Source: Planctomycetota bacterium (lineage in GTDB: Bacteria; Planctomycetota; Planctomycetia; Pirellulales; Pirellulaceae). Taken from it: DNA of 61,013 nucleotides. Below are positions 7,288 through 49,810 of the stretch, in pieces. Every line of letters begins with the position of its first letter. Position 1 is the first letter of the stretch. The stretch lies in contig JAPLNL010000029.1 in NCBI GenBank assembly GCA_026692905.1, forward strand, positions 1 through 61,013, in the 5' to 3' direction. Under the pieces are notes generated by a model. It was not told where the DNA came from, did not search any database, and worked only from the letters and a program-made list of their open reading frames with translations. Both the position numbers and the translations under genes were made by a program.

Positions 7288-7686
7288 TCAATTCAATCGC
7301 GTTGAGGGCAGGTGTTTCCAATTGGCCACCACCCGAACTGCACGGGCCCAGCCATAGCAACAGTTTACCAGCAATTTGCATGGAAATGGACTGTCAATTG
7401 GGGATCGATTGGTCAAAGTCTTGCATTTGCGGACAATTTCCGCAGAGTTGCTGGTTTCGAGAGAAACCAGTCACGGGAGAGGAGCCGGTTTCTCGGGAGA
7501 GGAGCAGGTTTCTCGGGAGGGCGAGGCTCCTGCCGAGCCAGGGTTGCAATGGTTCGGCAGGAGCCTCACCCTCCCGAGCAACGAATTGCTGAGGTAAACT
7601 CGTTGGAAACATGTTTACAGCGGTGGCCTCACCCTCCCAAGCAACGAATTGCTTAGGTAGACTCGACAACGCATTTGAGCCTCAAA
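7288..7686. repeat. repeat-filled spacer with 25-bp palindrome
   Basis: No gene is seen in this 399-bp spacer. A 20-bp unit (cgggagaggagcnggtttct) is tandemly repeated from 7474 to about 7513. A 25-bp inverted repeat follows (7512-7536 and 7554-7578, one mismatch), centred on gcgaggctcctgccga. The segment ccctcc(c/a)gagcaacgaattgct recurs twice between 7571 and 7655. On the minus strand it reads as repeated AREGEAPAEP-like peptide, which is a repeat translation and not a protein. Confidence 0.75.
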
Positions 7687-18603: not shown

Positions 18604-19012
18604 CTTTCCTCCGGGAATGGCGACAATGCGTATTTTCCTTGGTAGTTGGCTCTGCTTCACTCCCCTACAGCACATAGCGTACCGAAGCGCATCGGACACT
18701 TGCGGAACTATTGTTTTCTATCAATGGCACTTGATTTGCGTCTCAGAGGAATGCAGCTACTTGGCTGGAGCTAGGAACGTCGACCCGGCTTTGGTGTAGC
18801 GAAAACCCGTCAAGACTTTCGGCTGCATCGCCTAAACGACCGAAACTTTTGACGGGTTTTCGCTACAACATGCTTCACCGCGTTGCCTTGGAGGGCCAGG
18901 GGAGCAATGTCAAAAAGAGCAGGTGATGACAAGGCTAAGAATTGCCCTAATCGCATTTCCCCGCTTCCCGTTGAAGTAACCCCTTTGTTCGCATCTAATA
19001 AAATAGCCCAAA
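18604..19012. other. divergent intergenic region with 27-bp palindrome
   Basis: A 409-bp spacer between cdsA (minus) and a metallophosphoesterase gene (plus). It contains a long inverted repeat, 18796-18822 and 18840-18866 (27-bp arms, two mismatches, 17-nt loop) with core cgtcaagactttcgg. Related copies are at the window start and at 59380-59447. No small gene or clear promoter was seen. Confidence 0.7.
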
Positions 19013-30304: not shown

Positions 30305-30403
30305 GGCGGGATACTTGGTTCGGAGAGGAATAAAAGAGTCGATGCGAAAGTACAAATTGTACCTCGATACGTGAATTGAGTAGTCTAGGTGTTCCCGTTC
30401 GTT

Positions 30404-30826
30404 CTAACTCCCCTTCTCCTCCTCGGGAGGAGAAGGGGGCGGGGGATGAGGAGGCGAATCGCACTTAAGTATCGATCGTTTTAAGGCGCTATCGATCTCT
30501 TGAAGTACCCGTTGTGTATCGTGCTCAATTTCCTGGCTAGTGAATCGAATCACTTCAATGCCTTGTTGCTTTAGCCATTCGGTCCGAATTCGGTCTTTTT
30601 TTATCCCTTCAGGAGTGAAGTGCGGAAGCCCATCGCATTCGACACATAATTTGGCTTCGGGGCAATAGAAGTCAAGGATGTAAATCCCTTTGATGTATTG
30701 CCGTCGGAACTTGGCGTTGCAACGTTGTCGGTTTCGAATGAGTTGCCATATCAAATACTCGGCGGGCGTCATTGCTTCTCGCAGGTGCTCCGAGAAGTCT
30801 TGTGGTTCCAGCCATTCCATCGCCAT
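30404..30826 (-). CDS. DUF559 endonuclease-fold protein
   Basis: 140 aa. DUF559 (very-short-patch-repair/restriction-like nuclease fold): LREAMTPAEYLIWQLIRNRQ, then FRRQYIKGIYILDFYCPEAK with the core Asp in LDFY, and LCVECDGLPHF with the E-x-D type acidic pair. GIEVIRFTSQEI is the final conserved strand. The last 16 residues (PPHPPPPSPPEEEKGS) are encoded by the flanking inverted repeat, so the repeat has become part of the gene. The gene fits exactly within the paired 46-bp repeats and looks like a small mobile or domesticated cassette. Confidence 0.88.
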   Translation of the reverse strand: MAMEWLEPQDFSEHLREAMTPAEYLIWQLIRNRQRCNAKFRRQYIKGIYILDFYCPEAKLCVECDGLPHFTPEGIKKDRIRTEWLKQQGIEVIRFTSQEIEHDTQRVLQEIDSALKRSILKCDSPPHPPPPSPPEEEKGS

Positions 30827-30879
30827 GCTCCAACCTCCTCATCCCCCAACCCCTTCTCCTCCCGAGGAGGAGAAGGGGA
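30409..30879. mobile_element. DUF559 cassette bounded by 46-bp inverted repeats
   Basis: Left arm 30409-30454 and right arm 30834-30879 are inverted copies of each other, differing by two positions in 46 by hand alignment. Each arm is itself palindromic, with ccccttctcctcc and ggaggagaagggg around a centre (ctcgggag or cccgagg). The only gene between them encodes a DUF559 nuclease-fold protein. No transposase and no clear target-site duplication are visible, so mobility is inferred from structure only. Confidence 0.65.
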
Positions 30880-30894
30880 GCTGGAATGATCATC

Positions 30895-31854
30895 TTAAAA
30901 GAATACGCGTTCGGCGGTCCCACGTAGCATCCATTGCTTATCCTCTGGCATTAGGAAATCGAGTTGATCGCGAATGAGCCCGATAGAGTTTGCATAGTTG
31001 TGTCCCTCCCCTACTTGGTAGGGACAATCCGAAGCCCACATCAGACGCTTGGCTCCAAACTCTTTCACCAGCCTCTGAATCATTGGACCAAGATCTTGGT
31101 ACGGAGCCTTCTTTTCACCCAGTGCGTAAAAGGCACTCGTCTTCACAAAAACGTTGTCGTATTTGGCCAATCGGCACAAGTCGTCCAACGCAGATTTATC
31201 GATAGTGCCCGAGACTCCAATCCTTGCGAAGTGATCGACGACCACACGCGTTTTCGGATACTGCTCGCACATGCTGTTCACAAAAGGGAGTGCGTCGGGA
31301 TTCGCCAAAAGGCACATCGATTGTCCTGTTTCGGCAGCATGGCTCCACATCTCTTTCATTCCAGTGGAATCCTTCCATTTGCTGGCTTTGTCCCGATCGG
31401 TGTACAAGCGAAAGCCACGTACTCCCTTTTTCCCTAAGGAGCTCATCGTCATTTTCAGGCCGGGCTTGTTCTCGTCCACAATGGCCACACCAGAGAACAC
31501 TCCTGGATGTTTCTCCATGCAGTCGAGCATGTATTGGTTGTCAAAACCATAGAAGCTCATTTGAATCAAGACAACTTTGGTAACCCCTTGCGGCTTGCAA
31601 TTCGCAAAGAGTTCTTCCGGCGTGAAGCTTGGTGGAACCATGTCCGATACCTTGTACGCATCCGACAACGGATACTTCTTGGTGTCGGGTGTCCAAACAT
31701 GCACGTGGGCGTCGATCCATTCGGACGCCTTTTGCGCGGCCGACAAAGTGGCGGCGGCATTTGCCGTTTCAGGCCAGAGAGTGCTTAATCCCATCGTTCC
31801 AATCAAGGAACTGCCTACCGCTGCCGTTTGGATAAAATCGCGTCTTGAAATCAT
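30895..31854 (-). CDS. Tat-exported amidohydrolase (amidohydrolase_2 family)
   Basis: 319 aa with a twin-arginine signal (ISRRDFIQTAAVG, R4-R5) ending near ANAA. The metal motif H50-x-H52 is in WIDAHVHVW. FGAKRLMWASDCPYQ supplies the conserved C-terminal Asp in WASD(C/F)P, and RVVVDHFARIG a further His. This group (TIM-barrel lactonases and decarboxylases) often acts on sugar lactones or aromatic acids. AGGAG six bases before the ATG supports the start. It lies 27 bp downstream of a decayed copy of an M20 peptidase 3' end on the same strand. Confidence 0.92.
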   Translation of the reverse strand: MISRRDFIQTAAVGSSLIGTMGLSTLWPETANAAATLSAAQKASEWIDAHVHVWTPDTKKYPLSDAYKVSDMVPPSFTPEELFANCKPQGVTKVVLIQMSFYGFDNQYMLDCMEKHPGVFSGVAIVDENKPGLKMTMSSLGKKGVRGFRLYTDRDKASKWKDSTGMKEMWSHAAETGQSMCLLANPDALPFVNSMCEQYPKTRVVVDHFARIGVSGTIDKSALDDLCRLAKYDNVFVKTSAFYALGEKKAPYQDLGPMIQRLVKEFGAKRLMWASDCPYQVGEGHNYANSIGLIRDQLDFLMPEDKQWMLRGTAERVFF

Positions 31855-31880: not shown

Positions 31881-32018
31881 TTAGTGGATGCAAAACTCAG
31901 TATACCTTAACACGCAAAGACGATAAAACTCCGACGCCCTCGCGACTTGCTGCAATTCTATGAAACAAACTATTGCGCTTGCTTGGTCGATGCTGCTGGA
32001 CTCAAAAATAAAATCGGA
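31881..32018 (-). pseudogene. 3'-end remnant of an M20 peptidase gene
   Basis: On the minus strand 31958-31881 reads ELQQVARASEFYRLCVLRY, then a few changed residues and TAA. The intact M20 gene at 35266-36426 ends ELQQVARASEFYRRCVLSF-DEI, so 16 of the first 17 residues match. At DNA level 31911-31958 and 35287-35334 agree at 42 of 48 positions by hand. Similarity continues in degraded form to about 32018 (gcttg-tcgat-ctgc and tcggaa blocks) with a frameshift and TAG. It is a decayed duplicate in the same orientation, 3.3 kb from the intact copy. Confidence 0.85.
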
Positions 32019-32215
32019 ACTAAATCTTCATCCATTCTCGGCTCAATGGGTGCGTCATGCATGTTCCTGATAGACTCGATTCACCTTGCTCATCCTCATT
32101 CAAAAGACATTTTTTCGAAATTAACGAAATTAAGTTGACAGGAGACAATGGTACGGCTCAAATTTCAGTTGTTGAGAGATATTGCCCGATTTCTTCGTTA
32201 CGTTGGTTCATCCCG
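32019..32215. other. spacer upstream of secreted-protein trio
   Basis: Between the M20 remnant and the first gene of the trio. A+T-rich, with a short direct repeat (gctcaccagctcaccagctc) just after it at 32220-32239. No gene is recognised; any promoter for the trio would lie here. Confidence 0.35.
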
Positions 32216-33323
32216 ATGAAGCTCACCAGCTCACCAGCTCACAAGCCTTTGCAAAAAAAGGTTTTGGTTAGGTTCTTTCCGTTTTGCATTGATTCTTGTT
32301 CTTGTTCATTGCTCAATCCTAAGTGCTCAGCCTAGTGTAATAGAGTCGAAGGTATCGGCTGAACTGAAACTCTCAAAAGTAGGGGAGGTATTGGGCATTC
32401 AAGCGGAAATCATCGATGGGTTTTCTTATCGGTTCCCATTCTCAATTTCAACTGATTCAGACCAAATCGATCTCAATAGTTTGACTGCTGAATCGATTTG
32501 CAACTGCGTTCAGGTTCGATTCGACAAAGGATCGCTTTCCAAAAACACTGTTGCTTCCGGAGAAATTTTTCTTCGCCCCAAGTCTGGTCAGTTAGTCGAA
32601 GGGGTGAAAATTCGCGGCTTTCGAAGGGATGGATTGAACCAAAAAGCCGGAGAGGGTGACAATGTCGTTTTAATTTTTGCCCTTAAGGTAAAGGTGATCT
32701 GTCCCGTCGAGTTGTCGGATCGCCACTTGCTGGTAGAAGATGGGAAACTGCAAAAAAAAGAAGTCAAGTTGAAGGTTGCAGAGGGGGTCACGATCAAATC
32801 GTTGAGCGGGTCCTGTACTGATTCCGATCTTCAGTTGGTGACAGATTCGAAATTTAGTGAACTAACCCTGAAAGAGACAATGCCACTCACTGAGGGTCAT
32901 ATCTTTTTGGACTTCGAGTTGGAAAACCAGGGAGTTATTGGTAAATTCTCTCGGCAGATTGTTTATGGAGAGCGACTCAAGACGCGAATCGTTCCGTCAG
33001 TGTTGCTCTTCGATAAGCGCCAAGACAAGCCGCAGCAGAAATGCCTTCTTGTTGGGCCTGAATTGCTAGCGGGTAACGTGGCCGATTTGGCTCTTGATGT
33101 TCTAATCCGACAGCCGAAAGGTTTTAAGTGGGAGTCCGGTTTAATCAAGCCCGAGCTTGCAACGAAGGACCTGATCAATGCGGACAAAGCAATCCTTACA
33201 CTAACGATTGAGGAGAAAGTTGGCCTAGAGAAGTTCGATACTTGGACGATTCGTATCGTTGATCGAAATCATCCTGAGCTATTTGTTGATATTGACTGCA
33301 AATGGCGAGAGTCTAGCCCGTAG
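32216..33323 (+). CDS. secreted Ig-fold-like protein, probable frameshift in signal peptide
   Basis: The main frame runs to 33323 (344 aa from a TTG at 32289) but starts inside a signal sequence with no basic n-region. An ATG at 32216 in another frame gives MKLTSSPAHKPLQ before a run of seven A at 32253-32259. Removing one A joins it to KRFWLGSFRFALILVLVHCS followed by ILSAQ, an ideal signal peptide. So the gene probably starts at 32216 with a one-base indel or slippage in the A-run. The mature protein has no recognised motif; its beta-rich, hydrophobic-alternating pattern suggests Ig-like domains. First of three secreted unknowns on this strand. Confidence 0.7.
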
Positions 33324-33372
33324 TTGTGAATAGTTTTTCGTTGCCGTTTCGAAATTAATGGAGTTGGGTACT

Positions 33373-33951
33373 ATGTTTAGAAAGTTTTTGCTTCAAGTTG
33401 TTTTTTTGGTGATAGCCGGGTTCGCAGTTGATCTTCAGGCGCAAACAGGCGGAACCACGAATCCTAATTTTACTATCAACATTGTTAACGAAAAGGGGTG
33501 TCTTGATGCTGACCCGGAAACTGCAGAATTAGATAGCTGCCCGCCTGGGCAAGCCTCGCCGTGGACTAGTTGTCCCACGGGTATTTGTGATCGAAGCGCT
33601 GGTTCGGATACATGCAAGATACCCGCTCAAAACATCAACTTTGACCAATGGCGCCACTTTACGAACAGTTTCTACTATAATCCGCCCAAAGCTGCGCCAG
33701 GTGCGACTGGAAAGGCAGCAGTCGAAGTGGATCGTACACTTTGCTCTTACTTCCGCCAGTGCCCTTGCAAACGCCTTCCAGGCGGAGGGGTTGAATGCAC
33801 CTTGTATGAAGCCTTTGAGGATTGGTTGATCAAGTATGAACGCTCGAATACTGTGGTGTGTATTGGTGCCCCACCAGCGCCAGGAGGAGGTTCAGGAGGA
33901 GGTTCAGGAGGAGGCTCAGGAGGGCCAGAGGTGCCGCCAGAAGTGCCATAG
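33373..33951 (+). CDS. small secreted Cys-rich protein with Gly/Ser tail
   Basis: 192 aa from ATG 33373 (five more residues if 33358 is used; GGAG lies between them). Signal peptide MFRKFLLQVVFLVIAGFAVDLQA. The mature part has about ten Cys, including CPPGQ, CPTGICD and FRQCPCKRLPGGGVEC, suggesting several disulfides in an exported domain. It ends with a (GGGS)n-like tract and GPEVPPEVP. No family recognised. It starts 50 bp after the first gene of the trio. The C-terminal Gly/Ser tract echoes the N-terminal one of the protein at 9751-10749. Confidence 0.8.
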   Translation: MFRKFLLQVVFLVIAGFAVDLQAQTGGTTNPNFTINIVNEKGCLDADPETAELDSCPPGQASPWTSCPTGICDRSAGSDTCKIPAQNINFDQWRHFTNSFYYNPPKAAPGATGKAAVEVDRTLCSYFRQCPCKRLPGGGVECTLYEAFEDWLIKYERSNTVVCIGAPPAPGGGSGGGSGGGSGGPEVPPEVP

Positions 33952-34167
33952 TTAGCCCGGCAAAATAGTGTGTCTTTCGATCGTTGATCGGTTAAAGGGC
34001 GAACAGCAAAACAACGCCAATGTCGAGACTTGAAGGCTTCGTAACGTCGCCGGAAGTTTTAGAAAACTTAGTTGTTGGGGGTCTTCTCTTCGGGTTCGAT
34101 GAGCGTCATCGAATCCATCATGGGCGATTTATTCAGTTTTGTTGACAAAAATGCGGAGATCTTCGCG

Positions 34168-35127
34168 ATGGAAATCCATACTCGTTGTTGTGCTTTTATG
34201 CTCACATTTCTTTGGCTTAACGTTGCGAGCCAGCTAGATGCTCAAGATGACAAACTGGAGGATCGACTAGCCTTCTTGCAACTCGAGCGAAATGACCTTG
34301 ATCAGAAAAAAATGTCGGTTCTTATCGAAAAGTATCGAGTTTCAGAATCGGTGGTGCTTGGGGGAGCTAGGTTGTCAGGTGACAGGATACTTCAAAGGTA
34401 CATGTGCGATGGAAGAGCAAAGGTGCGAATTGACGCAATCAAATTGAATGCTTTGGGCGACGAAGATATCAACAAATCGCTTACCGAGGCTGAAATAGTA
34501 ACTCCCGTAAAGGGGATTCACTATCGCGGTAAGTTTCCCGCGGACCAAAAGTTCCTCGCTTTCGAGGTTCGAGCTGGCGTTATGGCGGTTGATACTTTTT
34601 CATGCCGAAAGCACCCATTCGAAATTGCAACGACATCAGCGACTGGAAATAGGAAGGATGGAGACAATAATTCGATGCTAGAAATCTCGCCCAAAAACAA
34701 AAAGATCATTGAAGAAAAGGTACTCCCTGACGGTAGGAGTTATTGGAAGTTTTACGTCTCTAACGATGCTGCAATCGGTCTCACGTTCAACAAGGATGAG
34801 AGCTGGTGCATTGAGCAGATGGAATGTTTTGCCGATGATTCGAACCTGTCGAATACTTTGGAGTCGGATGCAAAAAAATTGAAGATGTATGCGAGTACCC
34901 GCTCGCAATGGAAAAAAAATTCAGATGACCAGCTACTCCCATCGCGTGTATTTCTCGAGTCGGACGACAATGGAAAGGAGTCATGGGAGATTCGATTTGC
35001 AGATTGGAAATTTGGGGATCAGGTTGATACATCCCTTTTCGACGAGGTCAATTTCACAGAGGAAAAGATCAAAAAGTCGATTGACTTTCGGAAGGTCAAA
35101 AAGATGTTCGATGATTTACCCAAATAG
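34168..35127 (+). CDS. secreted protein of unknown function
   Basis: 319 aa from the ATG at 34168 (GGAG about 10 bases upstream), where a signal peptide begins: MEIHTRCCAFMLTFLWLNVASQLDAQ. A longer frame from 34072 adds 32 residues before it. A charged segment follows (LEDRLAFLQLERNDLDQKKM), then a mixed alpha/beta body with repeated strand-like stretches. It vaguely resembles lipoprotein-carrier-like folds, but no motif supports this. Third of the secreted trio lying between the M20 gene and its remnant. A+T-rich compared with the flanks. Confidence 0.78.
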   Translation: MEIHTRCCAFMLTFLWLNVASQLDAQDDKLEDRLAFLQLERNDLDQKKMSVLIEKYRVSESVVLGGARLSGDRILQRYMCDGRAKVRIDAIKLNALGDEDINKSLTEAEIVTPVKGIHYRGKFPADQKFLAFEVRAGVMAVDTFSCRKHPFEIATTSATGNRKDGDNNSMLEISPKNKKIIEEKVLPDGRSYWKFYVSNDAAIGLTFNKDESWCIEQMECFADDSNLSNTLESDAKKLKMYASTRSQWKKNSDDQLLPSRVFLESDDNGKESWEIRFADWKFGDQVDTSLFDEVNFTEEKIKKSIDFRKVKKMFDDLPK

Positions 35128-35265
35128 TTCGTATATTCCAAGATTGGCTTGCGTTTTATCACAATAGCAACGGCCATTAATGGCATTGCTGGCAGTCTGT
35201 CCCTCTAAATTTCGTGCGTGCCGAACTACAGCATTCGGTTCTTTCCGTTGATGTGACATTCGGAC

Positions 35266-36426
35266 CTATATCTCATCAAAACTGAGCACGCAACGACGGT
35301 AAAATTCCGACGCTCGCGCGACTTGTTGCAATTCGATGTACTCTACCGCTGCATGGGCTTGATCGATACTGCCGGGCCCGAAAATAATGGTCGGAATCCC
35401 TGCGCGGCCAAGCTTACTGGCATCGCTGCCAAAGGGGACACCGATGGGCTGGTCGTTCTCTCCCATCGCTTTCAAAACGTTTTGGGAGGCCAACACGATG
35501 GCGCTCGAGGGATCGACCGTCCATGCTTCGTCGAGCAGCATCGGTTCTTCCATTCGAACATCCATTTCAGGAACCTGTTGCTTTAATCGATCGATCAGGT
35601 TTTGATAGTGCTTCCAAACTTCGGCAACCGATTCGCTCGGAAGCAATCTTCGATCGATCTCGATCACGCAACTATCCGGAACGAAGTTGACTTGCACGCC
35701 ACCGGCGATCTTGCCAACGTTGCAACTAGCTGGACCAAGCAAAGTATCCGGTGCCTGCGCAAGTGCAACGTGCTCTTGTTCGAAGGCCAATACGATGCGG
35801 GCCATGTGATAGATGGCGTTTGTACCTAGATGTACTTTCGAGCTGTGTGCCGATTTGCCATGAGCATGAATGCGCCAGCGGAGCACTCCTTTGCTGGCGA
35901 TTGCAACCCGAAGATCGGTTGGCTCCGCCACAATGGCGGCGTCTGCCTTGAGTTCCTTGCATAAAGTCGTGACTCCTTGAAAGGAAAACTCCTCGTCCAC
36001 GACCGCAGCCAGCAAAACATCACATGGAGGTACCGTCCCCTGTTCTTTCAACGCCGCAACAGCATGCATCATCCCGGCCAAGCCCGCTTTCGTATCGCAC
36101 GACCCCCGTCCAAACATCAAGCCATTTTCCACCGTCGGCTCAAAGGGAGGGATGGTCATGCCCTGGACGGATACGGTGTCCATGTGGGCTTCGAGCACGA
36201 TGCGGCGGTTTGAGTCGACTCCGGGTAAACGAGCGATGACATTCGATCTAGCTTCGATGGCCCCGTTCGCATCAATAACTCTCTGTTGCCAAGTCTCGAT
36301 TCCACGGTTCGCAAAGAAACGCTCGACGTAGCGAGCGATTTCGGCTTCTCCGGGGCCATTATCGTAAAATGCGTTGACGCTATTGATGCGAATGAGATCG
36401 GCCAGCGTTGAGCTTAGGTCGGTCAA
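35266..36426 (-). CDS. M20 family peptidase / deacylase (ArgE/DapE-like)
   Basis: 386-aa dinuclear zinc hydrolase of the acetylornithine deacetylase / succinyl-diaminopimelate desuccinylase group. Metal and catalytic motifs: EAHMDTV (H81, D83), GRGSCDTKAGLAG (Asp), VVDEEFSFQG (Glu-Glu) and SKLGRAGIPTIIFGPGS near the C terminus. The start is a TTG at 36426 overlapping the upstream stop as TTGA, with AGGGG about 8 bases before it. Coupling to the PLP lyase gene points to amino-acid catabolism. Its 3' end is duplicated, in decayed form, at 31881-32018. Confidence 0.92.
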   Translation of the reverse strand: MTDLSSTLADLIRINSVNAFYDNGPGEAEIARYVERFFANRGIETWQQRVIDANGAIEARSNVIARLPGVDSNRRIVLEAHMDTVSVQGMTIPPFEPTVENGLMFGRGSCDTKAGLAGMMHAVAALKEQGTVPPCDVLLAAVVDEEFSFQGVTTLCKELKADAAIVAEPTDLRVAIASKGVLRWRIHAHGKSAHSSKVHLGTNAIYHMARIVLAFEQEHVALAQAPDTLLGPASCNVGKIAGGVQVNFVPDSCVIEIDRRLLPSESVAEVWKHYQNLIDRLKQQVPEMDVRMEEPMLLDEAWTVDPSSAIVLASQNVLKAMGENDQPIGVPFGSDASKLGRAGIPTIIFGPGSIDQAHAAVEYIELQQVARASEFYRRCVLSFDEI

Positions 36427-37442
36427 GATCGGTCCCCTTCTTGAAGATGGCGATCAAAGGTATCGATGTCGACGTTGCGTCCGCTCAAGACGAGCACCAC
36501 GTCACCTTCGCCGCTCAAGTCGATCTTATTGCAGAGGGCCGCAGCGATTGTGATTGCGCCCGAAGGTTCAGCACGCAAGCCGTGGCGAGTGTACATCCAC
36601 TTCATCGTCTGTTGTATTTGATGATCGGAAACGACTGCCGATTCACGCACATGCTTTTGAAGGATGGGCCAATTGTTAACACCAACGTCATAGGACAACA
36701 GGCCATCGCAAATGCTAGTCGGCTTGGGCAAGCGGACTCGTTCATTGGCTGCTAGCGATTGTCGGAAATCGTCCGCTCCCTCTGGTTCCACTCCGATGAT
36801 GCGAGCGGACGGGAAGTTGGCTGCGATCGAGATGGCATGCCCTGCCATCAGTCCTCCGCCGCTGACCGCACAGACGAAATGCGAGATGTCGCGCCGATCG
36901 TGCGATAGCGTTTGTGCTATCTCGAGCCCACCGACTCCGTTCCCAGAGATCACATAGGGATCGTCGTAAGGGGAGGCTTGCAATGCGTTTTCATTTTCAG
37001 CGATCTCGCGAGCCATCTTGTCGCGGGCGCCCGTCAAGTGATCGGTTACGATGTCGTACGTGCGAATCTCGGCGCCAAACGATCGGGTCAGTTCGAACTT
37101 CACTTTTGGCGCCGACTCCGGCATGACGATGATCACGCGTTTGCCGTACCGCATGCCGGCATAGGAAATTCCGGATGCGAAATTGCCTGACGAATGGGCC
37201 GCAACGGGTCGCGTTTCGAGATCGCTCAAGTGGTTGGCCATCCAATTGAGTGCCCCCATCAACTTGAAAGAACCAACGGGTGTCCAGCCGTAGTCTTTGA
37301 TCCAAACACGACGACTTGCAGCTAGCCCCAATTCTTTTTCCAATGCATAGGAGCGAATCAAGGGTGCTGGTGAAATGTGCTGCAACATCACTTTTTGGGC
37401 AGCTTGAACATCGTCTAGCGATACGGGGAGGGTCGTAGTCAT
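36423..37442 (-). CDS. PLP-dependent threonine/serine dehydratase-like enzyme
   Basis: 339 aa, fold-type II pyridoxal phosphate enzyme of the threonine dehydratase / serine racemase / hydroxyaspartate ammonia-lyase group. The Schiff-base lysine is K60 in VGSFKLMGA, AHSSGNFASG is the asparagine-loop motif, and SGGGLMAG near 195 binds phosphate. No C-terminal ACT domain, so it is a catabolic-type enzyme rather than a regulated IlvA. It overlaps the downstream M20 gene by 4 bp, so the two are co-translated. The substrate is a beta-hydroxy amino acid by family, otherwise unknown. Confidence 0.9.
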   Translation of the reverse strand: MTTTLPVSLDDVQAAQKVMLQHISPAPLIRSYALEKELGLAASRRVWIKDYGWTPVGSFKLMGALNWMANHLSDLETRPVAAHSSGNFASGISYAGMRYGKRVIIVMPESAPKVKFELTRSFGAEIRTYDIVTDHLTGARDKMAREIAENENALQASPYDDPYVISGNGVGGLEIAQTLSHDRRDISHFVCAVSGGGLMAGHAISIAANFPSARIIGVEPEGADDFRQSLAANERVRLPKPTSICDGLLSYDVGVNNWPILQKHVRESAVVSDHQIQQTMKWMYTRHGLRAEPSGAITIAAALCNKIDLSGEGDVVLVLSGRNVDIDTFDRHLQEGDRS

Positions 37443-48133: not shown

Positions 48134-48168
48134 TTCGAATCGATGTCTCAAGAAAACATTCGCCTTTT

Positions 48169-48226
48169 GGTAACCCGAAGCGTAAGCGAGGAGAGGATGA
48201 ATTTCCTCGATTACGCGTCGGGTTAC
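48169..48226. repeat. dispersed repeat, ggtaaccc family, copy 2
   Basis: ggtaacccgaagcgtaagcg begins at 48169 and the inverted cgtcgggttacc lies at 48215-48226, separated by gaggagaggatgaatttcct. It matches the element at 1518-1647 and again yields a VTRSVSEE peptide in translation. It lies between convergent genes. Confidence 0.75.
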
Positions 48227-48307
48227 CAAAGCAATCCCTTGCTCACGCATCGGGTTGTGAATAATCCTTCGAGCAGCGGTTTGCCGAAGGCGTACCTGCT
48301 GGTCGCT

Positions 48308-49423: not shown

Positions 49424-49810
49424 GCTTGATTGGATTCCTATCGGCTCGAAGCGAGTGGGATGCGGGAGGGAGTGAGCGAATCCTGTTCGGCTCAAACCCA
49501 TTCGATATTGGTAAAAATGGTGCAAAATGATTATTGTGTTTTGCAATCGCTTGCCTCGGCGAGTGATCTTACCACGTCGCACTTCCGGAGGACTTATGAT
49601 GGGGCAGAAAAATCGAACGCAGAAATATAGTTGCGACTTATTTTTCTGCGTTCGATCTTTCTGCCTATTTGCGTTTGGAATTCACACCGCTGTAGGCCTG
49701 TCATCAAAATCACAACTTTTTCTGTGATCTTGTTATGATAGTTGACGGTTCCGTCGCATGTGCCAAACGGACACATTTACGAAAGCCCATTGTATACCTC
49801 CGACAAAACC
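49424..49810. repeat. intergenic region with 23-bp hairpin
   Basis: A 387-bp divergent spacer before miaA. A 23-bp inverted repeat with one mismatch (49603-49625 and 49643-49665, 17-nt loop, core aatcgaacgcagaaa) dominates it. It follows gtggtaagatcactcgccg on the opposite strand. No small gene was recognised and no promoter could be fixed by eye. Confidence 0.7.

What the first reader, a model, noticed from the sequence alone, without database searches (positions are those of the whole stretch)
31881..36426. Secreted-protein trio lies between an M20 peptidase gene and a decayed copy of its 3' end
The last 17 sense codons before the tail of the M20 gene (35266-36426) are duplicated at 31881-31958 in the same orientation: 16 of 17 residues and 42 of 48 bases match by hand, and the similarity fades out near 32018. 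Between the copies are three plus-strand, A+T-rich genes for secreted proteins of unknown family. Duplication of a gene 3' end around a cassette is the signature of site-specific integration, but no integrase is present. A tandem M20 duplicate later invaded or eroded is the other explanation. In either case the intervening trio is a defined module.
Basis: partly seen in the sequence, partly recalled or inferred. Interest (0 to 1): 0.75.

Follow-up and report, generated by a model that had tools for sequence, protein, structure and literature searches.

The report
Gene trio inserted beside M20 peptidase
A rare set of three genes for probably secreted proteins of unknown function has inserted at the end of a peptidase gene in a Pirellula-like bacterium, duplicating about 120 bases of that gene's end, with no transposase or integrase found in the insert.

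Summary
Window 31896-32011 is a diverged direct copy of the M20 gene's 3' end (35272-35387; 116 nt, 73%; BLAST core 76 of 101 bases, E 6e-15). The closest relative, G021 (M20 96% identical), has the empty site: PALP-M20-amidohydrolase, one M20 end, no trio. M20 and amidohydrolase are neighbours in 18 of 23 other genus loci fetched. The window's M20 ends ..DE-I*; the native ending (..EFCVH* in G021) survives on the remnant (..EFCIH*). So about 3.25 kb lies between two copies of the target, and the native continuation follows the far copy. The copy derives from this lineage's own M20 (tree node 0.75) and shows no codon constraint. Site-specific integration is not supported; no integrase, transposase or paired inverted ends were found. 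[quoted passage not shown] T3 of the trio is found at five loci in three genus genomes, plus a fragment in a fourth; the order T1-T2-T3 is seen at three of these loci. The relatives found are few. A second insertion in the same genome, also absent from G021, has no flank duplication.

The parts
35266..36426 (-). M20 peptidase (ArgE/DapE deacylase subfamily), complete but ending ..SFDEI*; the last four native codons are replaced by one Ile codon and a stop
   Evidence: PF01546 E 3.2e-35; TIGR01910 238.7 bits over cut-off 217.6; comparison with G021
35272..35387 (-). target copy 1: M20 3' end inside the intact gene
31896..32011 (-). target copy 2: duplicated M20 3' end, decaying (perhaps to about 32019-32034)
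31881..31895 (-). native M20 terminal codons and stop (FCIH*), displaced from the gene and still next to the amidohydrolase leader
   Evidence: matches G021 FCVH*
32020..35271 (+). inserted segment, about 3.25 kb, absent from G021; G+C 0.458 (measured on 32019-35271) vs window 0.512
32289..33323 (+). T1: leader-bearing protein; a homologue's model is all-beta, consistent with three Ig-like domains; leader frame disturbed
33358..33951 (+). T2: leader-bearing protein with ten invariant cysteines and a Gly/Ser-rich tail
34072..35127 (+). T3: leader-bearing protein of unknown family; homologues start at the equivalent of 34168
35128..35271 (+). 144-bp spacer between T3 stop and the M20 junction; no match elsewhere in the eight genomes searched
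30895..31854 (-). amidohydrolase (Amidohydro_2, Tat signal), native downstream neighbour of M20
36423..37442 (-). PALP-family enzyme, threonine/hydroxyaspartate ammonia-lyase-like (below the NCBIfam cut-offs), upstream neighbour of M20 also in G021

Best explanation
An A+T-rich cassette of three genes for probably secreted proteins (T1-T2-T3) entered the 3' end of the M20 gene in the window's lineage by an illegitimate event that duplicated about 120 bp of that gene end. The likeliest forms are copying by a strand that switched template and returned upstream of its departure point, or filling-in of a long staggered break. The upstream copy became the new end of the M20 gene, which lost four codons. 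The downstream copy kept the native last codons and the leader of the next gene and has since decayed. The empty site and the duplication are shown; its local origin and lack of constraint are supported by short sequences; the molecular mechanism is inferred.
For: Empty site in G021, collinear with the window at 88-93% DNA identity on both sides. M20 and amidohydrolase neighbours on one strand in 18 of 23 other-genome loci fetched. Junction geometry: window M20 ..DE|I*, remnant ..TE-FCIH*, G021 ..NE-FCVH*. On the last 36 codons of 12 sequences the tree is (G021,(window M20, remnant) 0.753) 0.917, remnant branch 0.45 against 0.05. At the 97 sites where window and G021 agree, the remnant's changes are spread over codon positions (7/35, 8/34, 10/28; p 0.34; low power). 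None of the 12 inverted-repeat pairs listed joins the two ends of the insert. The three long ORFs have no Pfam match; of 11 shorter ORFs of 60-92 aa in or overlapping the insert, one has a below-cut-off match at E 0.096 and the rest none. Insert G+C is reached or undercut by 4 of 1156 sliding windows, the lowest of which starts at 31901 and overlaps it; three other copies have 0.44-0.46.
Against: Remnant divergence (25 of 97 sites) exceeds half the window-G021 fourfold divergence (0.18 in M20, 0.25 in PALP), so the event may predate the split, with later loss in G021. The tree rests on 108 nt, and the key node has 0.75 support. The second insertion in this genome shows 70 bp replaced and no duplication, so duplication is not a constant of trio insertion. 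No Ku was found in the genome (96% complete), which speaks against classical end joining at a staggered break. No donor copy of the trio was identified.
Confidence: 0.7

Rival explanations
1. The M20 gene (or M20 with neighbours) was first duplicated in tandem; the second copy was later invaded by the trio and eroded to its last 120 bases.
For: The remnant is probably a duplicate of the lineage's own M20, and its age may exceed the G021 split.
Against: No significant similarity beyond about 32019. The first copy ends at the duplication boundary and is followed by unrelated DNA, so insertion would have to hit the old junction precisely. No second M20 stretch in the 23 other-genome loci.
Confidence: 0.15
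2. Single-crossover homologous integration of a circle or fragment that already carried an M20 3' end together with the trio.
For: Gives the same geometry. In G026 the trio lies about 3.6 kb from M20 in the same relative orientation.
Against: In G026 it sits upstream of a serine-hydrolase gene whose neighbourhood is shared with G006, not at the M20 end. The remnant is closer to the window's M20 end than to that of any other genome compared.
Confidence: 0.08
3. Site-specific integration at a gene 3' end by an integrase acting in trans, as in genomic islands.
For: The target is a gene 3' end and the repeats are direct.
Against: No integrase found in the insert; the insert shortens the gene; the other copies sit in unrelated surroundings; the C119 copy has no flank repeat.
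Confidence: 0.05

Closest known systems
Insertion with long target duplication (Nobusato et al. 2000, Helicobacter pylori; known here only through passages in citing papers)
   Same: Polymorphic insertion of genes between long direct copies of the host target, seen by comparison with a relative
   Different: Described cases are frequently linked to restriction-modification genes; here the cargo is three probably secreted proteins in a planctomycete, and a second copy lacks the duplication
Genomic islands integrated at gene 3' ends by tyrosine recombinases (recalled)
   Same: Gene 3' end as target, direct repeats at both borders
   Different: No integrase found; the duplicated end is probably the host's own; the gene is shortened and not restored; other copies are at other sites
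Arabidopsis transposed genes with flanking direct repeats (PMC2869330, passages seen)
   Same: Ordinary genes moved, with direct repeats that often correspond to the target site in a relative
   Different: Eukaryote; circle formation and ectopic recombination discussed there

Membership tests
Insertion with long target duplication | Empty orthologous site in a close relative | tested here: met
   G021 L033
Insertion with long target duplication | Long direct copies of the target at both borders of the insert | tested here: met
   116 nt at 73%, about 124 nt with one gap
Insertion with long target duplication | Duplicate derives from the host's own target | tested here: met
   Tree node 0.753; a base shared only with the window at tail site 70 among the four relatives printed; moderate support on 108 nt
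Insertion with long target duplication | Cargo is a restriction-modification system (frequent, not required) | tested here: not met
   Window T1-T3: no Pfam or PHROGs match. Near homologues: no Pfam match for T1 and T2 and one below-cut-off match at E 0.22 for one T3 homologue; no NCBIfam or PADLOC match
Integrase-type island at a gene 3' end | Integrase gene in the insert | tested here: not met
Integrase-type island at a gene 3' end | Element-borne end restores the target gene | tested here: not met
   M20 loses four codons
Transposon or insertion sequence | Terminal inverted repeats | tested here: not met
   None of the 12 inverted-repeat pairs listed joins the insert's ends
Transposon or insertion sequence | Transposase gene | tested here: not met
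   No transposase match
Tandem gene duplication | Similarity over the duplicated gene beyond its last 40 or so codons | tested here: not met
   Anchored extension not better than shuffles
T1 as an Ig-like multi-domain protein | Tandem beta-sandwich fold | tested here: inconclusive

The most novel reading that the evidence does not exclude
T1-T2-T3 is a transposase-free mobile gene cassette of Pirellula-like bacteria that repeatedly enters new chromosomal sites by host-driven copying, sometimes leaving a duplicated target, and is kept under selection as one secreted functional unit.
Probability: 0.3. Interest if true: 0.6.

Novelty: new member of a known kind. Interest (0 to 1): 0.42.

Why it matters
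It gives a clean comparison, with an empty site in a relative whose M20 is 96% identical, for genes entering a chromosome with a duplicated target of over 100 bp and no recombinase found among them, a pattern described for Helicobacter restriction systems. It also defines a conserved three-gene unit that none of the four family libraries used here recognises, so its movement and role can be tested as one module.

Tried and rejected
Whole-gene remnant: a free local alignment with lenient gaps ran about 220 bases or more back from the M20 end, but the upstream part on its own scored no better than shuffles (162, 75 and 189 of 300 shuffles reached it). A first anchored test turned out to force end-to-end alignment of 279 bases and was also not significant (169 to 593 of 1000 over six settings). 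A properly written one adds 8 bases, not significant. Element-borne attachment site: disfavoured by the tail tree and the codon-position counts. Classical end joining: no Ku match in the genome. Phage origin: no relative in viral contigs, no PHROGs match. Defence role: no PADLOC match for three near homologues and a G023 T3. T3 fold: model too poor to use (mean pLDDT 37.9). By sequence, no significant solved relative for T3 (two matches at E 0.49) and none at E up to 1 for T1. Shared end motifs among trio copies: none that I could trust; a direct match at 32268-32283 and 35234-35249 (94% of 16 bases) is near chance by my own estimate. Promoter and terminator scans did not exceed shuffles clearly (3 found vs mean 3.7; 5 vs 4.3). 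One broad paper search that included Pirellula listed ten papers, none containing that word.

Rows dropped: G015 and G017 were meant for the tail tree but gave no tail by the motif used, so the tree has 12 rows. G012, G016 and G025 had no M20 stretch fetched. Weak T3 matches in G023:C68 (E 4.5e-5) and G019 (E 0.003) are not counted as copies.

Papers: PMC2869330, PMC1643837, PMC3031569 and PMC3077401 (reference list only) seen as passages. Nobusato et al. 2000 itself was not seen. PMC2853133 is not held. Other papers appear in search listings only.

Full report
What is there. The window is the first 61 kb of a 221-kb contig, G000:C29. Its genus includes G026, whose contig C45 has the same length and match position as JALOQZ010000414.1, 'MAG: Pirellula sp. 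isolate Prado168'. On the minus strand the order is PALP (36423-37442), M20 peptidase (35266-36426), then the insert, then a diverged copy of the M20 end (31896-32011), then amidohydrolase (30895-31854). Inside the insert three genes read on the plus strand. The repeat is real: 76 of 101 bases, E 5.8e-15; 116 nt at 73%; 70.7 bits against at most 30.1 in 1000 resampled and 25.6 in 269 overlapping real control stretches. It does not significantly extend into the rest of the gene.

The empty site. Of 26 genus-mates, 23 M20 loci were fetched (not G012, G016, G025). In 18 of the 23, M20 is followed by amidohydrolase on the same strand, at most about 0.3 kb away. The five others are G006 and G026 (M20 followed by a gene for a protein that looks membrane-bound by eye), G002 and G003 (M20 beside PALP, no amidohydrolase in the stretch) and G008 (fragment at a contig end). 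The closest, G021, is collinear with the window on both sides at 88-93% DNA identity, shows a single M20 end, and its genome has no T1 or T3 match. There, 36 bases separate the M20 stop from the amidohydrolase start (counted).

Junctions. G021 M20 ends NFNE-FCVH*. The window's gene ends SFDE-I* and runs into DNA not found elsewhere in the eight genomes searched. The remnant ends RYTE-FCIH* and continues into the native amidohydrolase leader. So the sequence up to GAG is present twice, and the native continuation follows only the copy next to the amidohydrolase. This is the geometry of a target duplication of about 116-124 bp.

Origin and age of the copy. On 108 nt from 12 sequences the remnant groups with the window's M20 (0.753) inside a window-G021 clade (0.917). 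At the 11 sites where window and G021 differ, the remnant agrees with the window at 6, with G021 at 3 and with neither at 2. One of the six, tail site 70, differs from all four relatives printed. Its private changes are spread over codon positions (7/35, 8/34, 10/28; p 0.34), whereas G022 and G009 differ mainly at third positions (17 of 25 and 14 of 23, first 96 bases). The test has little power, but fits decay without constraint. Against a young age, 25 of 97 sites have changed while window and G021 differ at 33 of 181 (M20) and 41 of 167 (PALP) fourfold sites, so an origin before the split followed by loss in G021 is not excluded.

The trio as a module. T1-T2-T3 occur in this order in the window, in G026 (T1 cut by the contig end) and in G023 C116. 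G023 C71 keeps T3 plus a 169-bp stretch (74%) that lies upstream of T1 in C116, so T1 and T2 were probably deleted there. G000 C119 has a shortened T1 and a T3; G003 has a T3 fragment at a contig end. Among 27 genus genomes T3 matches strongly in 4 (one a fragment) and weakly (E 0.003) in a fifth; T1 matches in 3 of 27. In the family sample T3 matches in 2 of 199 and T2 in 2 of 199, each time the own genome and one weak match. In the order sample T3 matches in 1 of 396, the own genome. The protein search, which reaches only relatives sharing short words, found 14 T3, 13 T1 and 3 T2 proteins, the window's own included for T3 and T1; for T2 only the 7983 candidates sharing most words were scored. 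Third-position excess between window and G026 (T3 61/41/156, T2 47/45/105, T1 C-terminal part 25/27/60) points to selection on the proteins. A T1 homologue is predicted all-beta, consistent with three Ig-like domains; T2 has ten invariant cysteines in six sequences. The four copies measured have G+C 0.44-0.46 beside flanks of 0.50-0.55; G023 C71 was not measured.

Other insertions. The C119 copy in the same genome is also absent from G021: bases 11563-13639 of L054 stand where G021 has 70 other bases, with no flank duplication. For the G023 copies, G024 aligns on one side (and at one copy through a short repeat), so their borders are unresolved. Duplication is thus shown at one of two resolvable sites.

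Mechanism. Without an integrase, transposase, paired inverted ends, Ku or constant borders, I favour a host-driven illegitimate event: template switching with return upstream of the departure point, or a long staggered break. This step is inferred. A pattern of this kind was named 'insertion with long target duplication' in Helicobacter pylori by Nobusato et al. 2000, known here through passages in PMC1643837, PMC3031569 and PMC2869330. An inferred effect is that the amidohydrolase gene, next to M20 in most relatives examined, now lies 3.4 kb away behind genes of opposite direction.

Verdict. The finding is a well-resolved insertion of a rare gene trio with a duplicated host target: a new member of a known kind of event, with unknown cargo. 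Site-specific integration is not supported.

Noticed in passing
window 32215-32330: A leader frame like that of T1 homologues (..HPDEAHQLTSSQ.., compare P0016 and P0019) is out of frame with the rest of T1 across a run of seven A; either T1 starts at TTG 32289 with a shortened signal, or the run is a frameshift, phase switch or assembly error.
   Followed up: partly
window 30399-30889: A DUF559 gene (nuclease-like, recalled) lies between 56-bp inverted repeats at 91% identity; the stretch does not align to G021, which has a different 0.95-kb segment there.
   Followed up: no
L054 11563-13639 (G000:C119): Second, decayed trio copy in the same genome, with T1 shortened and no T2 found; CGCCCATT-type tandem repeats precede T1.
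   Followed up: partly
L067 9336-10550 and L068 7087-10212 (G023): Two trio copies in one genome, 94% identical in T3; one seems to have lost T1 and T2.
   Followed up: partly
L091 3110-4291 (G024:C184): Where G023 has T3 beside an SDR gene, G024 has an AAA ATPase gene (PF13191); both sites share a 99-bp repeat at 78%, suggesting a variable site.
   Followed up: partly
window 7508-7582, 18792-18870, 43-102, 49603-49665, 48166-48230: Imperfect palindromes of about 60-80 bp (78-90% self-complementary), some with copies elsewhere in the window.
   Followed up: no
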